From Bradyrhizobium sp. RP6 (GTDB taxonomy: Bacteria; Pseudomonadota; Alphaproteobacteria; Rhizobiales; Xanthobacteraceae): 64,000 bases of DNA. Numbering within the stretch: the first letter of the stretch is position 1; every line of letters starts with the position of its first letter. The stretch spans positions 310,001 through 374,000 of the forward strand of contig NZ_RQIT01000004.1 of NCBI RefSeq assembly GCF_003837805.1. Direction: 5' to 3'. The position numbers were made by a program, and so were the translations under genes. Below the pieces are notes generated by a model. That model was given only the letters and a program-made list of their open reading frames with translations. It was not told the DNA's origin and searched no databases. Positions 7,182 through 63,675 of the stretch are shown here, piece by piece.

Positions 7182-7871
7182 TCAGCCGCCGACAGCAAGC
7201 CGCTTCAACACCGCTTCAGTCAGGCGCTCGCACCGCCAGCCGGCGAACGGGAATGCATCCATCATCACCGGACCGATCTCCTTCTCGACATTCTCGCGCA
7301 GCATCGTGCGGGCGCGATGCAGCCGCGTCTTCACGGTCTCCGGTTTCACGCCGAGCAGATCTGCCGTCTCCTCGATGTTCATGCCCTCCATGACGCGCGC
7401 GATGAAGACCATGCGGAAGACGTCCGGCAGTTCGTCTATGGCGCGTTCGACGACGCGCTGGATTTCACGTTGGGCCATGGTCTTTTCCGGATCGCCTGCG
7501 GAAGAAGCGGGGAATTTGATGATCTGCGCCGCGATCGCCTCTTCCGGCACCGCACCAAGCTCGACATGCGGCTTGGCGCTTCGCATCCTCCCAAGGGCTT
7601 CGTTGATGGCGATCCGCGACAGCCAGGTCGACAGTCCCGACTCGCCGCGGAAGCCGTCGAGATGGGTGAATGCGCGAACGTAGGTTTCCTGCACCACGTC
7701 CTCGGCTTCGCTGTCGCTGCGCAGGATGCCGCGCGCCAGGCGATAGAGCCTGCGGTTGTTTGCCTGCATGATCTCGCGCAAAGCAGTCTCGTCCCGGCGC
7801 CGCGCGCGGTTGATCAGCGCGGCCTCCAATGTCCTGGCCCCGGCGGACAGGCCGGCTGCAGTCCCTGGCAT
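7182..7871 (-). CDS. ECF RNA polymerase sigma factor
   Basis: 229 residues. The sigma-2 region runs from about residue 25 (LREIMQANNRRLYRLARGIL, then SEAEDVVQETYVRAF, then LSTWLSRIAINEALGRMR). Sigma-4 lies near the C-terminus (ELPDVFRMVFIARVMEGMNI, then LLGVKPETVKTRLHRARTML). An in-frame ATG exists at 7889, but GGAGATAGG sits just before the ATG at 7871 and the mapped promoter would leave almost no leader for 7889, so I chose 7871. No anti-sigma gene is adjacent. The matched promoters imply that it activates itself and the DUF4142-cupredoxin operon. Confidence 0.92.
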   Translation of the reverse strand: MPGTAAGLSAGARTLEAALINRARRRDETALREIMQANNRRLYRLARGILRSDSEAEDVVQETYVRAFTHLDGFRGESGLSTWLSRIAINEALGRMRSAKPHVELGAVPEEAIAAQIIKFPASSAGDPEKTMAQREIQRVVERAIDELPDVFRMVFIARVMEGMNIEETADLLGVKPETVKTRLHRARTMLRENVEKEIGPVMMDAFPFAGWRCERLTEAVLKRLAVGG

Positions 7872-30704: not shown

Positions 30705-33632
<2,928 letters not shown>

Positions 33633-33728
33633 AGCTTGCACACAACCTGCGAGAGGAATGGGAAATCGCGGGCCTTACACCATTTTGGGCGGGCCCGCGC
33701 AAGTCGGACGGTTCCTAAAAGTGAACGC

Positions 33729-55389: not shown

Positions 55390-55529
55390 GAAGCCAAGAT
55401 AGCACGCATAAGGAACAAATCAAGAACACAAACAAAAAACGTGAAAACAACCCCATGCAAAGTAGCCGCCCAAATTTCGGGCGCGCCGCTTTGACCTCAC
55501 GCAACACGCCCGTCACGAGGATTTCGTTT

Positions 55530-55599: not shown

Positions 55600-58014
55600 A
55601 TGACAATTCAACAAAAAACCGCCGCCGCGATCGGCGACCTCGGTCTGCTCGACCGCTATTGGCGCGCCGCCAACTACCTCTCGGTCGGGCAAATCTACCT
55701 GCTCGACAATCCGTTGCTGCGCGAGCCGTTGCGGCCCGAGCACATCAAGCCGCGTTTGCTCGGCCATTGGGGCACCACGCCCGGCCTGAACTTCATCTAT
55801 GCCCATCTCAATCGCGTGATCCGCGCGCTGGACCTCAACGTCATCTATGTCTGCGGGCCCGGCCACGGCGGCCCCGGAATGGTCGCCAACACCTATCTCG
55901 AAGGCAGCTACAGCGAGATCTATCCCGACATCGCGCGCGATACGGACGGATTGCGCAAGCTATTCAGGCAGTTCTCCTTCCCCGGCGGCATCCCGAGCCA
56001 CGCGGCGCCGGAAACGCCGGGCTCGATCCACGAAGGCGGTGAGCTCGGCTACGCGCTGGTACACGCCTATGGCGCTGCATTCGACAATCCTGATTTGATC
56101 GTCGCCTGTGTCGTCGGCGACGGCGAGGCCGAAACCGGCCCTCTCGCCGCGTCCTGGCATTCGAACAAGTTCCTTAACCCGGCGCATGACGGCGCGGTGC
56201 TGCCGATCCTGCATCTCAATGGCTACAAGATCGCAAATCCGACCGTGCTCGGACGGATGGCAGATGCGGAGATCCGCGATCTCTTCCGTGGGTTGGGCCA
56301 TGAACCGCTGTTCGTCGCCGGCGATGATCCCGAATTGATGCACCATGCCATGGCGGATGCGCTCGATGTCGCACTCGCCAGCATCCGCTCGATCCAGCAG
56401 CATGCCCGCGACGGGCGCAAAAGCGTCGAGCGGCCGCGCTGGCCGATGATCGTGCTGCGCAGCCCGAAGGGCTGGACCGGTCCGAAGGAGGTGGACGGCA
56501 AGAAGGTCGAAGGCTTTTGGCGTGCGCATCAGGTCCCCGTCGCCGGATGCCGCGAGAACCCGGCGCATCTGAAGGTGCTCGAAGACTGGATGCGCAGCTA
56601 CGAGCCGGAAAAGCTGTTCGACGCGAACGGCGCGCTCGCTCCCGAGCTTCAGGCGCTCGCACCCCAAGGCGTCAGGCGCATGGGCGCCAATCCTCACGCC
56701 AATGGCGGCCTGTTGAAGAAGGAGCTGAAGCTGCCCGACTTCCACAGCTTCGCAATCGAGGTGCCGCAGCCCGGCGGCGCCATCGCCGAAGCGACGCGCG
56801 AGCTCGGCAAATTCCTGCGCGACGTCATCCGCCTCAACGCGCGACAGCGCAATTTCCGCATCATGGGGCCGGACGAGACCGCGTCGAACCGGCTAGATGC
56901 GGTGTTCGACGCCACCGAGCGCGTCTGGATGGAGCCGATCGAACCTTACGACGTCCATCTCGCCCAGGACGGCCGCGTGATGGAGGTGTTGAGCGAGCAT
57001 CTCTGCCAGGGCTGGCTCGAGGGTTATCTGCTCACGGGACGGCACGGCTTCTTCTCCTGCTATGAGGCCTTCATCCACATCGTGGATTCCATGTTCAACC
57101 AGCATGCCAAATGGCTGAAGGTCACGCGCGACCTGCCGTGGCGGCGCCCGATCGCCTCGCTCAATTATCTCCTGACCTCGCATGTCTGGCGTCAGGACCA
57201 TAACGGCTTCAGCCATCAGGACCCCGGATTCGTCGATCTCGTCGCCAACAAGAAAGCAGACATCGTCCGCATCTACTTCCCGCCGGATGCCAACACGCTG
57301 TTGTGGATCGCCGATCACTGCCTGCGCACCTACAACCGCATCAACGTAATCGTCGCCGGCAAGCAGCCGGCGCCGCAATGGCTCTCGATGCAGGACGCTG
57401 CGACGCATTGCGCAGCCGGCATCGGCATCTGGGGCTGGGCCGGAACGGAAGACGGACAGGGTGAGCCCGACGTGATCATGGCCTGCGCCGGCGACGTGCC
57501 GACGCTGGAGACGCTCGCCGCCGTCGACCTCCTGCGCAAGGCGCTGCCGGACTTGAAGATCCGCGTCGTCAACGTCGTCGACCTCATGACGCTGCAGCCA
57601 AGGGAGCAGCATCCGCACGGCCTCGCCGACCGCGACTTCGATGGCCTGTTCACGCGCGACAAGCCGGTGATCTTCGCCTATCACGGCTACCCCTACTTGA
57701 TCCACCGGCTGACCTATAGCCGCACCAACCATGCCGGCATGCATGTGCGCGGCTTTGCCGAGGAAGGCACCACAACGACGCCGTTCGATATGGTCGTGCT
57801 CAACGAGCTTGACCGCTACCACTTGGCAATCGAGGCGATCGAACGCGTGCCGGGGCTTGCGACCAAAGCCGCGCGGGTAAAGCAACAGTTCCGCGACAAG
57901 CTGATCGAGCACTCCCGCTATGTTCGCGAGCATGGTGAGGACATGCCCGAGATCCGCGACTGGGTGTGGCAAAACAGTGCCGGCGGCAACACGCCGGCCG
58001 AAGCCGGCGACTAG
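55600..58014 (+). CDS. xfp: Xylulose-5-phosphate/fructose-6-phosphate phosphoketolase
   Basis: 804 residues, thiamine diphosphate enzyme. Motifs: [20 protein letters not shown] at the N-terminus, [60 protein letters not shown] for cofactor binding, and [20 protein letters not shown] in the C-terminal part. It splits ketose phosphate with Pi to acetyl phosphate. The ATG at 55600 gives the standard N-terminus. It is followed after 2 bases by acetate kinase, which uses its product. Confidence 0.96.
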
Positions 58015-58016
58015 CC

Positions 58017-59209
58017 ATGCCGAACACGATCCTCGTCCTCAACTCGGGATCGTCGAGCATCAAGTTCGGCCTGTTCGATGTCTCGGCAGCTGAGCCCTCC
58101 CTGCTCTGCAGGGGCCTGCTCGACGAACACGAGGCAAGACCCCGGCTCGTGGTGAAGGACCCCGCGGGCGAGGACCTGTTCGAGGCGCGAAGGGACGCGC
58201 CGGACGCCGACGGCGGCGGCCATCTGTTCGCCGACGTGCTCGCGTTCATCGAGGACCGGTTCGGTGCAGACAGCTTGCGGGCCGTCGGCCACCGCATCGT
58301 CCACGGCGGGCCGGATTATTCGGGCCCGGTCGTCCTGACGGACGACATCACCGCGAAGCTGGAGGCATTGACGCCGTTGGCGCCGTTGCACCAGCCGCGC
58401 TGCCTTGCGCCAGTCCGCGCGTTCGCGTCGATCCGGCCCGGGCTGACGCAGATCGCGTGTTTCGACACCGCCTTCCACCACGGCCTCGCGCCGCCGGCGA
58501 GCCGCTTCGCCATTCCCAGGCGACTCGAGGCGCGCGGCGTCAGGCGCTACGGCTTTCACGGCCTCTCTTTCGAATATGTCGCGGGACGCCTTTCCGAGAT
58601 CGCGCCGGAGCTTGCGACCAGACGCACCGTCATCGCGCATCTCGGCAACGGCGCCAGCCTCTGCGCATTGCGCGATGGCCGCAGCATCGACACCACGATG
58701 GGACTGACGCCGCTCGACGGCCTCGTGATGGGCACACGCTGCGGCACGATCGATCCCGGCGTGCTGCTCTATCTGCAGCAACACGAGAGCATGTCCGTCG
58801 AGGAGGTCCAGCACCTGCTCTATCACGAGTCAGGCCTCTTCGGCGTCTCCGGCACCTCCGCGGACATGCGCACGCTGCTGGCGAGCGGCGAGAGCGCGGC
58901 GCGAGGGCGGTCGATCTCTTCACCTTCCGTGCGGCGCAGGCAGTCGCAATGATGGCGACGACGCTCGGCGGCCTGGACTGTCTGGTCTTCACCGGCGGCA
59001 TCGGCGAGCATGCCAAGGAGATCCGCAGCGCGATCGGCGAGCGTCTCGCATGGATGGGCGTGCGCATCGATGCCGCCAGCAACGACGCGGCACGCGGACG
59101 CATCAACGGCAGCGACAGCGCCGTCGAAATCTTCGTCATTCCAACCAATGAAGAGATGACGATCGCGCGCCATTGCGCCGCGCTGATCCGTGGGCGCCAC
59201 GCCACGTGA
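58017..59209 (+). pseudogene. ackA: Acetate kinase, interrupted by one frameshift
   Basis: From the ATG at 58017 the frame reads a normal acetate kinase (ILVLNSGSSSIKFGLFDV, then RYGFHGLSFEYVAGRL, then AHLGNGASLCALRDGRSIDT, then GVSGTSADMRTLLASGESAA). Near 58890-58910 (GGCGCGAGGGCGGTC) it leaves frame and stops at 58952. The rest continues in another frame from AVDLFTFRAAQAVAMMATTL through FTGGIGEHAKEIRSAIGERL to the TGA at 59207. One added base restores a protein of about 398 residues, the usual length. It is either a recent mutation or a sequence error. It would convert acetyl phosphate and ADP to acetate and ATP. Confidence 0.88.
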
Positions 59210-59292
59210 CAATTTTATGAATGATCTGCCGCAATGCTGCCGCCGCGGTTTCGCGGCACAGATACCGCATCAATCCTGGTTGCGGACCGATC

Positions 59293-61220
59293 ATGAAAAC
59301 CCAGATCATCGAAGAGCTCGGACAAGGCAGCATCCTGTTGCCCGCGCTGGTGGCGGAAGGGCTCGCCGCCAACGACCGGATCAAGGTGCGGATGAGCGCG
59401 TTGCAGGCGGCGGCCGGCATGCGCAGGAGCCTGACGGGCCCGCGAATGACCTCGGGGTCGAAAGCCAGACTGCAGGCATCGCTCCCGCCGGGATCGCAGC
59501 GCTGATCGGCGGCGCGCATCTGATCGGACAGGGCCGGCTCGCAGCCCCCGATCTTGCGAAGCTGATGCAGGAGATTGCGGACGATGCAGCGACCATGATC
59601 CGCGCCGTCGGCGCCGGCGCGGTGAGCGAAGGCGAAAGGGCGCAGGCGCGGCTTGACGCGATCCGCACAGCCGGCCTGCTCGATGCCACCGGCGAGATCG
59701 AGATGTCCCGCATCTCGCGCCTGACCGGCGTCGCCGATGCAGGCAGCGACAGCCTGCATCGCCTCGTCATGGATCTGCACAAGCAGCTCAACCGGCTTGC
59801 GGCGAGCTGCTCGGAGGAAGCGCTCGACGGCGCCCATGTCTTCGGCCTGCACAGCGAAGACCGGCCGGCCGTCGCCGCCTTCATGAAGGGCCTGAACGCG
59901 ACGCGGGGTCTGAAGTTCAATCACCCCGGTCTCGACACCATGGCAACACGCGCCGGCGGCCGGCTGCTGATCCAGAACGACATCGGCACCACGGACGCCC
60001 ATGTCGTCGTGATCGCGGTTAAGAAGAACGCGGTCACCGTCACCTACACCGACGTGCATCTGGCGCGGGCGAAGTTCTTCATCTCGCTGTTCGAGGCGTT
60101 CGAGGCGAGCTGGAGCGGCCTTGATCGTCACACCGCGGCCGGCCTCGGCGAGGACAATTCCTTCTATCTCGTCACCGGGCAGTATCAGGGCGACCACGCC
60201 GCCGATCGCAACGAATTCCTCGCGGCGCTCGGTGCGACCCTTGTGTTTCTGATCGACTGGAACAAGGCGCGCAAGCTGCTCAGGACCTGGGTCGCCAAGG
60301 AAGACGCGGCACGCATCCTCGAATGGGCTGCGCGTCAGCGGATTGGCCATCGCGGCTTCCTCGAGCTCGGCGGCAACGATCTGCTCGGCTCCGCTGTCCG
60401 GAACGCCGCTCCGACGCGGATCGGCTTCGGCGAGCGGCTCGACCAGGCGCTCGGCCGCAACGCTGCAATCGATTTTCTGAAGACATCTCTGCGCGCCTCC
60501 ACCGAGGCACTGCTTGCGGGCCGCTCGGTCAGGACGGTGCGCGACCAGATCGAGGCCGATCTGATGCGGCACCTCGATCGCGTCGATGGGACTCTGCTCG
60601 CAGCCGTGCTGCGTCAGATCGGCCTCGCCCACGATCTCGTCGCGGCGATCTCGCGCCATATTGCCGCGCTCCGCGCGGACCAGCCCGCCGACGGCAAGCT
60701 GTTGACGCAACACTGCAGCGCGATCGAGCAGAAGGCCGACCGAATCGCGATCGAGAGCCGCAACGAGGTCGACCGCCTCAATGCCCGCCCGCTGATCGGA
60801 CAATTGATCGATCGCGCCGAGGAAGCCGTCGACGAGCTGGAGCAGGCCGCATTCATCGCCGCACTGATGCCGGAAAGGACCGATCCATCCCTGCTGGAAT
60901 CGCTGGCCGAGCTTTGCACGGTGGCAGAGACCGCGACCGAAGTGGCCGCGAGCGGCGTCGCGGCAGCGATCGACGTGCCGGAGGGACGGCGCGCCGATTC
61001 CGAGGACGCGCTCTCCGCCGTGACCCGCCTGATCGACGCCGAACACGCCGCCGACAGCCGCGAACGCGCGATCACCGCGCTGGTCTTCCGCGGCGGCTTC
61101 GACGTCGCGACCTCGCTGTCGGTGATCGAGCTCGCCCGCGCCGTCGAGCGCGCCACCGACCGCTTCGCCGCGTTCGGCCATCTGCTCCGCCGTCACATCA
61201 TGATCGATCTCGCAGCTTGA
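59293..61220 (+). pseudogene. PhoU/DUF47-like protein of about 642 residues, interrupted by one frameshift
   Basis: From the ATG at 59293 the frame reads MKTQIIEELGQGSILLPALV, then AEGLAANDRIKVRMSALQAA, and is lost near 59410-59425. The remaining reading frame continues HAQEPDGPANDLGVESQTAG to the TGA at 61218. One added base joins them. The first two thirds have no domain I recognise (GLKFNHPGLDTMATRAGGRL, then YTDVHLARAKFFISLFEAFE). The C-terminal 180 residues resemble the PhoU/DUF47 fold (PLIGQLIDRAEEAVDELEQA, then VIELARAVERATDRFAAFGH). It lies between ackA and the PPDK half, with 11 bases to the next start. Confidence 0.7.
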
Positions 61221-61231
61221 GGACGCTACCC

Positions 61232-62842
61232 ATGCATATCGTCCGTATCGGCGCTGAGGCCGCCGAATTGCGGCCCGCCGAAGAGATCGGCGCCAAGGCC
61301 GCCAATCTCGCCCGCATGGCGGCGCTGGGCCTGCCGGTGCCGCCTGCCTTCGTGCTCCCGGTCAAGCTCTGCGCCGACATCATTGCCGGCCAGGCGCAGG
61401 CCACGCGGCACCTGCGCGATGGCCTGAAGGAGGGAATCTCGTTCCTGGAGGGCGCCACTGGAAAGCGCTTCGGGGATCGCCGGCAGCCGCTCCTGGTGTC
61501 GGTGCGCTCGGGAGCGGCGCGATCGATGCCGGGCATGCTCGACACCGTTCTCAACGTCGGCTGCACGCTAGACGCCGTGCATGGCCTGATCCGTGCGACC
61601 GGCCGGCCGCGGCTCGCCTGGGATTGCCGCCGCCGTTTCCTGGAGAGCTTTGGCGAGACCGTGCTCGAGCTCGACCCGACCGCCTTTGCCGCGTGCATCT
61701 CGGAGCTCGTCGCAGCCGAAGACGCCGGCAGTGACCGTGAGCTCGACAGTGAAGCGCTCGAGCGGCTCGCCGGCCGCGAGCAGGCGCTGATCGAGAATCG
61801 CGCCGATGCCCCGCTGGAGGACGCGTTCGCGCAGCTGGAGGCGGCGGCCCAAGCGGTCTATCGTTCCTGGACGAGCGAGCGTGCGCTGACCTATCGAAGC
61901 CTCCAGCACCTCGAAGCGCTCGAGGGTACCGCCGTGACCGTGCAGGCGATGGTCTTCGGCAATGGCGGTCTTGCCTCCGGCGCGGGCGTGGCATTCTCGC
62001 GCGATCCATCGACGGGCGCGCGGCGCCCGATGATCGACCTCGTACTCGATGCGCAGGGTGAAGACGTGGTTTCCGGACGACGCACACCTGATACGGCCGA
62101 GGCGATCGCCCGCGAGCTGCCGAAGCTCGAAGCCGAACTCGGCGATGTCCTGAGGCGGCTCGAGCACGCGTTCGCCGACGTCCAGGACGTCGAGTTCACG
62201 GTCGAGAACGGCAGGCTCTGGATCCTCCAGACCCGCACAGCCAAGCGCACGCCGCGGGCCGCCGCCAGGATCGCGATCGACCTCGTGCATGAAGGCCTGA
62301 TCTCGAAGGAAGAGGCCTTGGAGCGGATTGCGGAGATCGACCTCGCCTCGCTTACCGAAACAAGGCTGGTTTCCTCCGGCAAGCCCGCGACGACCGGCAT
62401 CGGCGCCGCCGGCGGCATCGGGATCGGACGGGCGGCGTTCTCGTCCGAAAGCGCCCAGCGCCTCTCGGCGGCGGGCGAGCCGGTCATCCTGCTGCGTCCC
62501 GATACAAGCACCGCCGACGTCGCGGGCTTCGCGCTGGCCGCGGGTATCGTCACATCGGTCGGTGCGCGCACCTCGCATGCGGCCTTGGTGGCGCGGCAAA
62601 TGGGCAAGCCCTGCGTGGTCGGCTGCCGTGAGTTGAAGATCGATCTCGTTACGAAGCGCGCCCAGCTCGGCCAAGTCAGCTTTGCCGAAGGCGAGTGGAT
62701 GACGATCGAGGGCGACGCCGGAGAGCTCTATCTCGGACGCTGCGAGACGATCCGGACACGGCCCGAAGCCGAGCTTGCCGAGATCGCCACGTGGCAGGCG
62801 CAATCCAGCCAACATGCTCGGCGCGCCGCCGCGCCTCAGTGA
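61232..62842 (+). CDS. Free-standing ATP-grasp and phosphohistidine half of pyruvate phosphate dikinase
   Basis: 536 residues. It matches the N-terminal half of PPDK: PAEEIGAKAANLARMAALGL (ATP-grasp start), RRQPLLVSVRSGAARSMPGM, GAGVAFSRDPSTGARRP, FTVENGRLWILQTRTAKRTP, and the phosphohistidine loop GARTSHAALVARQMGKPCVV with the catalytic His intact. The C-terminal PEP/pyruvate barrel is absent: the protein ends (AELAEIATW, then a 16-residue tail) where full PPDK continues with GVRVNADTPDDA. It can therefore be phosphorylated but cannot make PEP alone. Start: GAGGACGCT before the ATG. Confidence 0.88.
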   Translation: MHIVRIGAEAAELRPAEEIGAKAANLARMAALGLPVPPAFVLPVKLCADIIAGQAQATRHLRDGLKEGISFLEGATGKRFGDRRQPLLVSVRSGAARSMPGMLDTVLNVGCTLDAVHGLIRATGRPRLAWDCRRRFLESFGETVLELDPTAFAACISELVAAEDAGSDRELDSEALERLAGREQALIENRADAPLEDAFAQLEAAAQAVYRSWTSERALTYRSLQHLEALEGTAVTVQAMVFGNGGLASGAGVAFSRDPSTGARRPMIDLVLDAQGEDVVSGRRTPDTAEAIARELPKLEAELGDVLRRLEHAFADVQDVEFTVENGRLWILQTRTAKRTPRAAARIAIDLVHEGLISKEEALERIAEIDLASLTETRLVSSGKPATTGIGAAGGIGIGRAAFSSESAQRLSAAGEPVILLRPDTSTADVAGFALAAGIVTSVGARTSHAALVARQMGKPCVVGCRELKIDLVTKRAQLGQVSFAEGEWMTIEGDAGELYLGRCETIRTRPEAELAEIATWQAQSSQHARRAAAPQ

Positions 62843-63675
62843 GTACCCGTCAGGATCTGGAAAACCCCCATCGCGACCTCGATCAGGATCAGCACCACGA
62901 CGGCAATCTCCAGGCGGAGCGAGCGCTGGGTGTCGATGATGTCGGTCAGCGCGTTGGCGGTCTCCGATATCGCGGCAAGCTTGCGCTCGAGCGTGTCGAG
63001 GCGCTCCTTCAGCTCGTACTCGTCCTCCAGGCGCGAATAGAGCCGATCGAGCTCGGGCTTCTCCCAGAGCACGTCGGGCTTCTCGGCGATGGCGACCCGG
63101 CCGGCGACCCGCTGCTGCACCAGCAGCGCGTTGCCGATCAATTGCAGGATGCCTTTGCGCCGTTGCGGCGTGCGGCCGTGTTCGGCGAGCTCCCGTGCAA
63201 ACGGCTCGATCACATCGAAGACCGCGGCGACGCGGCGCTCGTCGCGCGCCAGCGAAGTGCTCTTGGCCAGCGCATCCGCAACCAGCAGCAGCCGGTCGTC
63301 GGAGAATTTGGCGAGGCAGATCGGCCCGCCCGGCTGGATCGTCTCGGCGGCTTCTTCGTTGCAGAGCTGCGCCTGCGCGATCTCCTCCTCGTACGGGCTG
63401 AGTTCTCCGGTCACGCGTGACTTCAGATTGTCGATAAGGACCTTCTCCTCGGACGGAAGCAGCCCGATCAGCACGACGACGCCGTGGCGAAAGATCACGG
63501 CAAGACCGGCATGAACGCGGAAGGCGGCCGGCGTCGAGGACACCAGCGTGCCGATCTCCAGGCTGGAAGCATTAATGCGGTCGCCCAGCATCAGCGCCCG
63601 GATCCGCAAGGTCGGCGCAGTCCCCTGCTTCGGCGACGCTGGCACCGCGCCGACGGCGAGTTGATCGGCGTTCAT
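62836..63675 (-). CDS. RMD1/DUF155 family protein
   Basis: 279 residues. RMD1-type core: PTLRIRALMLGDRINASSLE, then AVIFRHGVVVLIGLLPSEEK, then ETIQPGGPICLAKFSDDRLL. The C-terminal part is a coiled coil (YSRLEDEYELKERLDTLERK) followed by one membrane helix (LEIAVVVLILIEVAMGVFQI). Eukaryotic members are mitochondrial inner-membrane proteins; the bacterial role is unknown. The stop overlaps the end of the convergent PPDK-half gene by seven bases. Confidence 0.88.
   Translation of the reverse strand: MNADQLAVGAVPASPKQGTAPTLRIRALMLGDRINASSLEIGTLVSSTPAAFRVHAGLAVIFRHGVVVLIGLLPSEEKVLIDNLKSRVTGELSPYEEEIAQAQLCNEEAAETIQPGGPICLAKFSDDRLLLVADALAKSTSLARDERRVAAVFDVIEPFARELAEHGRTPQRRKGILQLIGNALLVQQRVAGRVAIAEKPDVLWEKPELDRLYSRLEDEYELKERLDTLERKLAAISETANALTDIIDTQRSLRLEIAVVVLILIEVAMGVFQILTGTH

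What the first reader, a model, noticed from the sequence alone, without database searches (positions are those of the whole stretch)
55600..62842. Possible phosphate-linked carbon-shunt module: phosphoketolase, acetate kinase, PhoU-like protein and half a PPDK
Four co-directional genes with gaps of 2, 83 and 11 bases (reconstructed). Phosphoketolase consumes Pi to make acetyl phosphate, and acetate kinase turns it into ATP. The third gene ends in a PhoU/DUF47-like domain, a fold linked to phosphate sensing. The fourth keeps only the ATP-grasp and phosphohistidine domains of PPDK. I infer that the last two form a phosphotransfer pair (a kinase half acting on a partner or sensor) attached to the phosphoketolase shunt. 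I know of no described role for this arrangement.
Basis: partly seen in the sequence, partly recalled or inferred. Interest (0 to 1): 0.72.

Follow-up and report, generated by a model that had tools for sequence, protein, structure and literature searches.

The report
Half-PPDK kinase and PhoU-fusion partner
Two adjacent bacterial genes, a truncated phosphate-transferring kinase and a large partner protein ending in a phosphate-sensor-like domain, travel together as a fixed pair in many bacteria, and only in some Bradyrhizobium do they sit behind a known low-oxygen carbon-shunt operon.

Summary
The four genes are there, with gaps of 2, 83 and 11 bases. In this assembly ackA and the third gene (called G3 here) each lack one base relative to relatives. 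The four are not one conserved module. xfp-ackA is the already published FixK2-controlled phosphoketolase/acetate kinase operon of Bradyrhizobium, and the window carries the identical FixK2 box. The last two genes are an independent pair: a half-PPDK follows G3 at once in 78 of 79 database loci (the 79th contig ends), in 10 of 10 distant alphaproteobacterial genomes and on both plasmids inspected. Only 30 of 79 loci have xfp, and in eight sister genomes xfp-ackA occurs at the same site without the pair. G3 has three parts: an N-terminus resembling the small partners of other half-PPDKs (suggestive only), a middle domain rich in invariant His/Asp/Asn without a confident PDB match, and a PhoU domain whose four E/DxxxD motifs are invariant (67 of 67). 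The half-PPDK keeps its catalytic His. Best reading: a PPDK-derived phosphotransfer pair, acceptor in G3, gated by the PhoU domain. No phosphotransfer was tested; any tie to the shunt is lineage-specific.

The parts
55491..55504 (+). FixK2-type box TTGACCTCACGCAA, starting 109 bp before the xfp ATG
   Evidence: the identical motif is printed for bll2518-bll2517 in PMC9104804 (table passage). The pattern TTG[AC]N6[GT]CAA is found at -105 to -119 in 27 of 30 xfp-bearing G3 loci, 23 of them letter for letter. The window holds 4 such patterns, 3.3 expected by chance, so the weight lies in conservation and the paper.
55600..58014 (+). xfp, phosphoketolase, 804 aa
   Evidence: XFP_N, XFP, XFP_C; NCBIfam phosphoketolase NF003621 1650.5 bits, cut-off 1295
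58017..59209 (+). ackA, acetate/propionate kinase, frame broken near 58904-58910 in this assembly
   Evidence: Two frames both match Acetate_kinase; one base missing against 4 relatives
59293..61220 (+). G3, PhoU-fusion partner (642 aa in relatives), frame broken near 59419-59421 in this assembly
   Evidence: one base missing against 4 relatives
59293..59801 (+). G3 N-terminal part (about residues 1-170 in the numbering of L050) with N27-x3-K31-x6-Q38 and D-S-x-H156-x6-H163; contains the frame break and overlaps the modelled start of the middle domain
   Evidence: N27, K31, H156, H163 in 67 of 67; Q38 in 66 of 67; likeness to small half-PPDK partners
59745..60446 (+). G3 middle domain (residues 152-385), invariant H211, N229, D230, H237, D254, H256, D322, W323, N324, R327, K328
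   Evidence: 67 of 67 each; AlphaFold2 pLDDT 87.7 on a relative; folded alone, best PDB matches only VIA-align Z 6.4 and Foldseek E 0.007
60552..61217 (+). G3 PhoU domain (residues 421-642) with four E/DxxxD motifs
   Evidence: Z 24.2 to 3l39, Z 21.7 to 1t72; all four motifs 67 of 67
61232..62842 (+). half-PPDK, 536 aa: ATP-grasp plus phosphohistidine swivel domain, no PEP/pyruvate domain
62576..62578 (+). codon of the predicted phosphorylated His449 (GARTSHAALVAR)
   Evidence: Alignment with full-length PPDKs

Best explanation
Two units sit end to end. (1) xfp-ackA: a FixK2-controlled shunt (fructose/xylulose phosphate + Pi to acetyl phosphate, then ATP). (2) G3 + half-PPDK: an obligate two-protein, PPDK-derived phosphotransfer unit. 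The half-PPDK binds ATP (and, if it kept PPDK chemistry, Pi) in its ATP-grasp domain and charges His449 on the swivel domain. Having no pyruvate/PEP domain of its own, it docks the swivel domain on G3, which supplies the acceptor: either a small molecule bound in the His/Asp/Asn-rich middle domain (slightly favoured) or a G3 histidine of the D-S-x-H-x6-H helix. The PhoU domain, with its four E/DxxxD motifs, gates the reaction by Pi or metal. Shown: the genes, domains, invariant residues, strict adjacency, and that the pair and xfp-ackA occur without each other. Inferred: complex formation, phosphotransfer, the acceptor and the gating.
For: Adjacency in 78 of 79 loci, 10 of 10 distant class genomes and 2 of 2 plasmids inspected of 3 with a match; median gap 13 bases, 69 of 78 at most 30. 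In a class scan with a half-PPDK profile, all 10 other G3 genomes were listed with a match next to G3, and the only other listed frame under 700 aa was at a contig end (list cut, and frames are stop to stop, so a half can hide in a long frame). The 12 half-PPDKs beside G3 that were compared fall on one side of a branch (100/100) and keep the ATP-site and His motifs. The host also has a full-length PPDK (978 aa, window 30705-33641), so the half is not its substitute. PhoU fold and four invariant E/DxxxD motifs. Small partner genes also flank other half-PPDKs, and that partner family is fused to a PEP-utilizing enzyme and, beside a half-PPDK, to an AMP-binding protein. Precedents: VadK autophosphorylates on His422, and its operonic partner was washed off with 2 M NaCl; HpeHI is a split dikinase.
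Against: No biochemistry. No substrate is suggested by context: the wider neighbourhood is heterogeneous. The middle domain has no confident fold match, so 'acceptor site' is a guess from invariant residues. The likeness of the G3 N-terminus to the small partners is weak: hhalign probability under 10%, P 0.003 to 0.29 by mode; N-x3-K-x6-Q in 8 of 14 partners. In this very genome G3 is broken. PhoU domains usually act as regulators (general knowledge), which would favour a signalling over an enzymatic role.
Confidence: 0.52

Rival explanations
1. One reading: the pair is a regulatory arm of the phosphoketolase shunt in Bradyrhizobium, the half-PPDK acting like VadK on a central-carbon enzyme (Xfp or AckA), with G3 as sensor.
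For: Co-directional; no terminator-like site on + between ackA and G3; a FixK2 box upstream of xfp; 25 of 79 loci with xfp and ackA upstream on the same strand; VadK is reported to tune carbon flux in mycobacteria.
Against: 43 of the 73 loci with at least 3.7 kb upstream have no xfp, nor have the 10 distant relatives. In 8 of 11 further xfp loci fetched xfp-ackA sits between the same flanks without the pair. At the same radical-SAM flank the pair occurs without xfp/ackA (L077, L082, L089) or with xfp but no ackA (L054, L061, L074, L083, L111).
Confidence: 0.12
2. Purely regulatory phosphorelay: the half-PPDK phosphorylates a histidine of G3 (H156 or H163), and G3's PhoU domain passes the signal on, for example to a phosphate transporter or sensor kinase; no small-molecule substrate.
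For: Invariant H156 and H163 in a D-S-x-H-x6-H helix (67 of 67), PhoU domain, VadK precedent as a histidine kinase. One locus (L100) has a hybrid sensor kinase gene 134 bp upstream of G3.
Against: At least eleven further invariant residues in a separate middle domain look catalytic or ligand-binding rather than like a relay. No transporter or sensor gene was identified as a constant neighbour, but clusters were not annotated by family, so this is weak.
Confidence: 0.25
3. In this strain the module is a decaying remnant: the single-base losses in ackA and G3 are real mutations.
For: Both breaks lie within about 520 bases. Of 36 ORFs of one relative with a good match in the window, 32 were covered by one piece and ackA was the only one flagged as split between frames (the G3 break escapes that test because its long part exceeds 85%). 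G3 is also broken by stops in L121, interrupted in L080, and reduced to an N-terminal remnant in G017.
Against: Single missing bases in GC-rich runs of a draft assembly are a common error; xfp and the half-PPDK are intact; the sequence after each break stays 71 to 92% identical to relatives. Against a second relative (13 ORFs, 10 whole) the same test also flagged a 1152-aa mechanical frame that spans other window genes, so the test is coarse.
Confidence: 0.4
4. The half-PPDK is an inactive or scaffold remnant of PPDK that stabilises G3.
For: It lacks the PEP/pyruvate domain.
Against: The catalytic His, the VRSGA...SMPGM loop, [ST]R[DN]P and QDxEFT are kept in all 12 half-PPDKs compared; VadK shows that a half-PPDK can autophosphorylate.
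Confidence: 0.06

Closest known systems
VadK (Rv1127c), half-PPDK histidine kinase of mycobacteria (PMC13400623: abstract, sections 16, 17 and 18, and passages seen)
   Same: Same truncated architecture (ATP-grasp plus phosphohistidine domain, no PEP/pyruvate domain), catalytic His kept, operonic partner gene
   Different: Partner here is a 642-aa PhoU fusion instead of a separate neighbour gene of another kind; the G3-linked half-PPDKs form their own group; no link to the methylcitrate cycle seen; no biochemistry
Two-component small-molecule dikinases HpeHI, CreHI, PpsAB (PMC12167813: abstract and passages seen)
   Same: PPDK-type phosphohistidine chemistry split over two proteins
   Different: There the cut falls between ATP-grasp and swivel+substrate domains; here ATP-grasp and swivel share one chain and G3 matched neither
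FixK2-regulated phosphoketolase/acetate kinase operon bll2518-bll2517 of Bradyrhizobium diazoefficiens (PMC9104804 and PMC6515984: one table passage each)
   Same: Same first two genes, same box TTGACCTCACGCAA upstream
   Different: The predicted operon printed there has two genes only; G3-half-PPDK is an extra cassette in some species
PhoU / DUF47 (PhoU_div) proteins, PDB 3l39, 1t72, 2olt
   Same: C-terminal 220 residues of G3 share the fold and have four E/DxxxD motifs
   Different: Fused to about 420 residues with no family match; beside a half-PPDK
Canonical PPDK (own copy at window 30705-33641, minus, 978 aa)
   Same: N-terminal and central domains
   Different: Half-PPDK lacks the C-terminal PEP/pyruvate domain; falls in a separate group

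Membership tests
VadK-type half-PPDK kinase | ATP-grasp and phosphohistidine domains without the PEP/pyruvate domain | tested here: met
   Only PPDK_N and PEP-utilizers found in 536 aa
VadK-type half-PPDK kinase | Catalytic His in T-S/A-H context and ATP-site motifs | tested here: met
   12 of 12 G3-linked rows
VadK-type half-PPDK kinase | Groups with VadK-like half-PPDKs in a tree | tested here: inconclusive
   G3-linked rows on one side of a branch, 100/100; their place relative to VadK-like and full PPDKs unresolved (31/24). Rv1127c itself was not in the tree.
VadK-type half-PPDK kinase | Small (about 200 aa) partner gene next door, as on the plasmids inspected | tested here: not met
   The neighbours in the window are G3 (642 aa in relatives) and a minus-strand 279-aa gene. 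A resemblance of G3's N-terminus to such partners is suggestive only
VadK-type half-PPDK kinase | ATP/Mg-dependent autophosphorylation; binding to methylcitrate enzymes | not testable with these tools
   Needs purified protein
Canonical PPDK | C-terminal PEP/pyruvate-binding domain | tested here: not met
   the chain ends at 536 aa and the next gene is on the other strand
PhoU | PhoU helical-bundle fold | tested here: met
   About residues 421-640, Z 20.1-24.2 to eight entries named PhoU or PhoU-like; next unrelated row Z 16.6; profile match to 3l39 E 0.0014
PhoU | E(D)xxxD motifs | tested here: met
   Four motifs, 67 of 67 sequences; motif named in the abstract of PMC5686610 (listing seen)
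PhoU | Gene linked to a Pst or Pit phosphate transporter | not tested
   Neighbour clusters were not annotated by family
Two-component small-molecule dikinase (HpeHI/PpsAB type) | ATP-grasp alone on one chain, swivel plus substrate domain on the other | tested here: not met
   ATP-grasp and swivel are on one chain
FixK2-regulated xfp-ackA operon | FixK box upstream of xfp | tested here: met
   TTGACCTCACGCAA at 55491-55504; same motif printed in PMC9104804

The most novel reading that the evidence does not exclude
G3-half-PPDK is a new kind of split dikinase: the ATP-charging half and the acceptor half are separate proteins, the acceptor half carries a catalytic domain not yet matched in the PDB plus a PhoU domain that makes the reaction phosphate-responsive, and its N-terminus is a docking module shared with the partners of other half-PPDKs, VadK's included.
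Probability: 0.22. Interest if true: 0.8.

Novelty: new variant of a known kind. Interest (0 to 1): 0.5.

Why it matters
In the papers found here a half-PPDK is reported as a kinase only in 2025-2026 (VadK), and what such enzymes pass phosphate to is open. This is a second group with a strictly linked, much larger partner in soil bacteria (506 confirmed stretches in one scan), whose partner carries a PhoU domain and an unmatched, highly conserved domain. It offers a non-pathogen system to ask what half-PPDKs phosphorylate, and a genetic tie between PhoU-type phosphate sensing and PPDK chemistry, which consumes Pi. It also corrects a tempting reading of the four-gene block as one pathway.

Tried and rejected
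Small-partner search in 398 phylum genomes with one plasmid protein gave nothing, which by the tool's own note shows nothing. Four hits outside the class (L132-L135) cover only the PhoU part; they are separate ORFs of 208-239 aa, and no half-PPDK match (E<0.01) lies in the 11-13 kb stretches around them. In that phylum sample full-length G3 was found in 4 of 398 genomes, all of the window's class. NCBIfam's weak ISNCY transposase hit to G3 (E 8e-5, 21.5 bits, cut-off 325) was set aside as chance. Tektin and GCN4/tropomyosin hits are taken as helical coincidences. Middle-domain matches to MotA (Z 6.4 alone, 7.8 in the whole model), Arp2/3 subunit, BirA and YbjN are below the level I would trust; a missing match does not show a new fold. 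Wider neighbours: of 52 clusters shared by at least 4 of 62 diverse loci (40 printed), only one outside the pair spanned more than 6 loci (17, by eye ABC-transporter ATPases, easily linked by family size). Genes just upstream or downstream differ: QueG-like, ABC, HlyD, cytochrome, phosphoesterase, sensor kinase and others. FixK-type pattern within 300 bp of G3 in loci without xfp: 3 of 49.

Likeness of G3's N-terminus to the small partner family: 0 of 399 column shuffles reached the score for residues 1-185 (25.4, best shuffle 24.2), but 1 of 149 did for the full profile (25.6), 1 of 149 for the middle segment that holds the second motif (23.1), and 12 of 149 for the PhoU part (16.5). hhalign probabilities were 0.1 to 9.8% and P 0.0033 to 0.29 over modes. 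It is kept as a lead. Rv1126c was never seen as sequence; that it belongs to this small-partner family is a guess from gene order and recalled size.

Literature: searches showed no paper on this pair in the held open-access library (listings seen; opened only: PMC13400623, PMC12167813, PMC9104804, PMC6515984, PMC3050613). PMC10551460 holds 'DUF47' and 'PEP-utilizing' and was not opened. PMC3050613 (passages) lists a Rhodopseudomonas palustris phosphoketolase among putative FixK targets with fold changes that differ between growth conditions. Most subscription journals are not held.

Rows dropped: A4 uses 55 of 79 loci (near-copies left out by choice; L080, L114, L121 as interrupted, partial or with stops). 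A5 uses 51 of those 55. The 67-row set is A4 plus 10 class relatives plus 2 plasmids. The first PPDK tree held five mis-framed rows that I removed; only the second is used, with 12 G3-linked rows (L042, L045, L046 and the 78 database loci were not in it). Beside the 14 small partners one further gene called MarR was left out after alignment. The 79 loci are the best-scoring of 506 stretches and lean to Bradyrhizobium; some are the same genomes as the genus handles, none shares a contig length with the 10 distant class loci. ORF calls around loci were mechanical and some are antisense shadows.
Full report
OBSERVATION. The four genes are present on + with gaps of 2, 83 and 11 bases: xfp 55600-58014, ackA 58017-59209, the third gene (here G3) 59293-61220, half-PPDK 61232-62842. 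ackA and G3 each need a frame change: against four Bradyrhizobium relatives the window lacks one base in ackA and one in G3. In relatives both are single frames. Of 36 ORFs from one relative with a good match in the window, 32 were covered by one piece and ackA was the only one flagged as split between frames; against a second relative (13 ORFs, 10 whole) ackA and one 1152-aa mechanical frame spanning other genes were flagged. The G3 break is not caught by that test because its long part covers over 85%. Whether the breaks are real or assembly errors cannot be told.

WHERE. The window is C44:310001-374000 of a 7.7-Mb, 85-contig genome. Its genus is Bradyrhizobium by inference: contigs of 'same genus' handles have the same lengths as named Bradyrhizobium contigs (e.g. 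100045, 245841, 89896, 28889 bases).

THE FIRST TWO GENES ARE KNOWN. A FixK-type box TTGACCTCACGCAA starts 109 bp before the xfp ATG. A table passage in PMC9104804 lists bll2518 (phosphoketolase) and bll2517 (acetate/propionate kinase) of B. diazoefficiens with this same motif, a two-gene predicted operon, and about tenfold lower expression in a fixK2 deletion. PMC6515984 lists bll2518 in a table comparing protein and gene expression in microoxia (passage). The pattern recurs at -105 to -119 in 27 of 30 xfp-bearing G3 loci and at -106 to -117 in 9 of 11 further xfp loci. By chance the window would hold 3.3 such patterns and holds 4, so the evidence is the conservation and the published data, not the match alone. 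The upstream region is itself well conserved (mean 0.81, box 0.91, with stretches above the box).

THE LAST TWO GENES ARE A SEPARATE, FIXED PAIR. G3 is full-length in 9 of 36 genus genomes (own included; a tenth, G017, keeps an N-terminal remnant) and in 11 of 385 class genomes (own included; a twelfth hit is a 38-residue match). In 398 phylum genomes it was full-length in 4, all of the class. A scan of the 84,980-species collection gave 506 confirmed stretches, of which the best 79 loci were kept; by title they are alphaproteobacteria except one Terriglobia MAG. In 78 of 79 a half-PPDK follows at once; in the 79th (L102) the contig ends 126 bases after G3. The median gap is 13 bases, 69 of 78 at most 30. 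In all 10 other class genomes with G3 the half-PPDK follows. A tblastn against plasmids found three records with G3; the two inspected, from Methylocella tundrae and the betaproteobacterium Aquabacterium olei, have the pair, annotated 'DUF47 family protein' or 'phosphate transport regulator' and 'PEP/pyruvate-binding domain-containing protein'. The third, also M. tundrae, matched over 43% in two pieces and was not inspected. A class scan with a half-PPDK profile (372 genomes, 280 with a match) listed all 10 other G3 genomes beside G3; the only other listed frame under 700 aa was at a contig end (G212). That list is cut, and its frames run stop to stop, so halves elsewhere are not excluded.

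INDEPENDENCE FROM THE SHUNT. xfp is found in 30 of the 79 loci, xfp and ackA upstream on the same strand in 25; of the 73 loci with at least 3.7 kb upstream, 43 lack xfp. None of the 10 distant class loci shows either gene in the stretch fetched. xfp is in 30 of 36 genus genomes. I fetched 11 further xfp loci (10 of the 22 genus genomes with xfp but no full-length G3, and G032): in eight (L221-L228) the order is radical-SAM gene, xfp, ackA, the minus-strand gene homologous to window 62836-63675, with nothing of the pair between. At the radical-SAM flank other genomes have the pair without xfp/ackA (L077, L082, L089) or xfp and the pair without ackA (L054, L061, L074, L083, L111). So the linkage is lineage-specific. 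Which state came first is not settled; the wide spread of the pair without xfp suggests that it is older than the linkage (inference).

ANATOMY OF G3. The window's G3 passes no Pfam cut-off; across 55 relatives DUF47/PhoU_div matches 28 at E<=1, best 1.7e-7. AlphaFold2 on a full-length relative (L050) with 55 sequences gives pLDDT 89.9. Residues 421-640 are a PhoU domain: Z 24.2 to 3l39, 21.7 to 1t72, with unrelated helical bundles (ALMT channels) at 16.6 and below; the profile matches 3l39 at E 0.0014. Its four E/DxxxD motifs (479, 510, 584, 619) are kept in 67 of 67 sequences and are the only such motifs there in L050; the motif is the one used to recognise PhoU in PMC5686610 (abstract in listing). 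The middle domain (152-385), folded alone at pLDDT 87.7, has no confident match (Foldseek best E 0.007, VIA-align best Z 6.4). H211, N229, D230, H237, D254, H256, D322, W323, N324, R327 and K328 are in 67 of 67. The N-terminal part has N27-x3-K31-x6-Q38 and D-S-x-H156-x6-H163; D153 and S154 vary (59 and 53 of 67).

A LEAD ON THE N-TERMINUS. VadK-like half-PPDKs on actinobacterial and burkholderial plasmids sit beside or near a roughly 200-aa gene (Mycobacterium branderi; Rhodococcus, 54, 96, 103; Streptomyces atratus, 78; Diaphorobacter, 79). That family also forms the C-terminus of an AMP-binding protein next to a half-PPDK and of a PEP-utilizing enzyme; some members have no half-PPDK in the stretch fetched. 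It shares N-x10-Q (14 of 14; with K at +4 in 8) and [DES]-S-x-H-x6-H-E (13 of 14) with G3 in the same order. hhalign aligns the second motif, P 0.004, 0 of 399 column shuffles as high for residues 1-185, 1 of 149 for the full profile, but probability stays under 10%. I treat this as a hypothesis: a shared docking module of half-PPDKs.

THE HALF-PPDK. PPDK_N plus PEP-utilizers only; NCBIfam PRK05878 at 438.7 bits, cut-off 456. The 12 G3-linked half-PPDKs compared fall on one side of a branch (100/100) and keep the ATP-site motifs and the catalytic His (His449 here); the relation to VadK-like half-PPDKs is unresolved. The genome has a 978-aa PPDK inside the window at 30705-33641 minus, full-length by size and alignment; I did not scan its C-terminal domain.

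MECHANISM. Established elsewhere: VadK, a half-PPDK, autophosphorylates on its catalytic His with ATP and Mg, its operonic partner aids solubility and was removed with 2 M NaCl, and it is proposed to act on methylcitrate enzymes (PMC13400623). HpeHI shows that PPDK-type dikinase chemistry can be split over two proteins (PMC12167813). Inferred here: the half-PPDK charges His449 and passes the phosphate to an acceptor in G3, a bound small molecule or a G3 histidine, with the PhoU domain as Pi/metal gate. PPDK chemistry consumes Pi, which would make a PhoU gate sensible (family knowledge, recalled).

VERDICT. Interest rests on the pair, a new variant of half-PPDK systems with a new partner.

Noticed in passing
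window 30705-33641 (-): Full-length PPDK of the host (978 aa) in the same window as the half-PPDK.
   Followed up: partly
G000:C44:163456-164448 (L001), outside the window: A third, strong PPDK_N match (373.7 bits, 899-aa frame) in the same contig; not identified further.
   Followed up: no
L024 (G017), about 7550-7783: Remnant of the G3 N-terminus downstream of xfp with the rest gone: a trace of loss of the cassette.
   Followed up: partly
L121 and L080: G3 broken by stops (L121) or its match stretched by about 580 extra bases (L080), so the gene seems to decay in some Bradyrhizobium.
   Followed up: no
L152 2441-4612; L156 2177-4558: The small half-PPDK partner domain at the C-terminus of an AMP-binding protein (Rhodococcus sp. 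LW-XY12) and of a PEP-utilizing enzyme (R. opacus B4): hints at a wider family of split dikinases on catabolic plasmids.
   Followed up: partly
L144 3839-7473: Rhodococcus sp. 008 plasmid: PEP-utilizing 123-aa gene, partner gene, hypothetical gene and half-PPDK in a row.
   Followed up: no
L148 1388-4542: Skermanella plasmid: pyruvate kinase gene directly before a half-length PPDK (568 aa) that groups with full-length PPDKs (98/95), apparently a separate truncation.
   Followed up: partly
window 62836-63675 (-): A 279-aa gene on the other strand overlaps the 3' end of the half-PPDK by 7 bases; it looks like an RMD1/DUF155 protein (by eye, no call).
   Followed up: no
L109: A MAG labelled Terriglobia carries the pair, 55% identical to Bradyrhizobium, beside a biotin carboxylase gene: transfer or mis-binning.
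   Followed up: no
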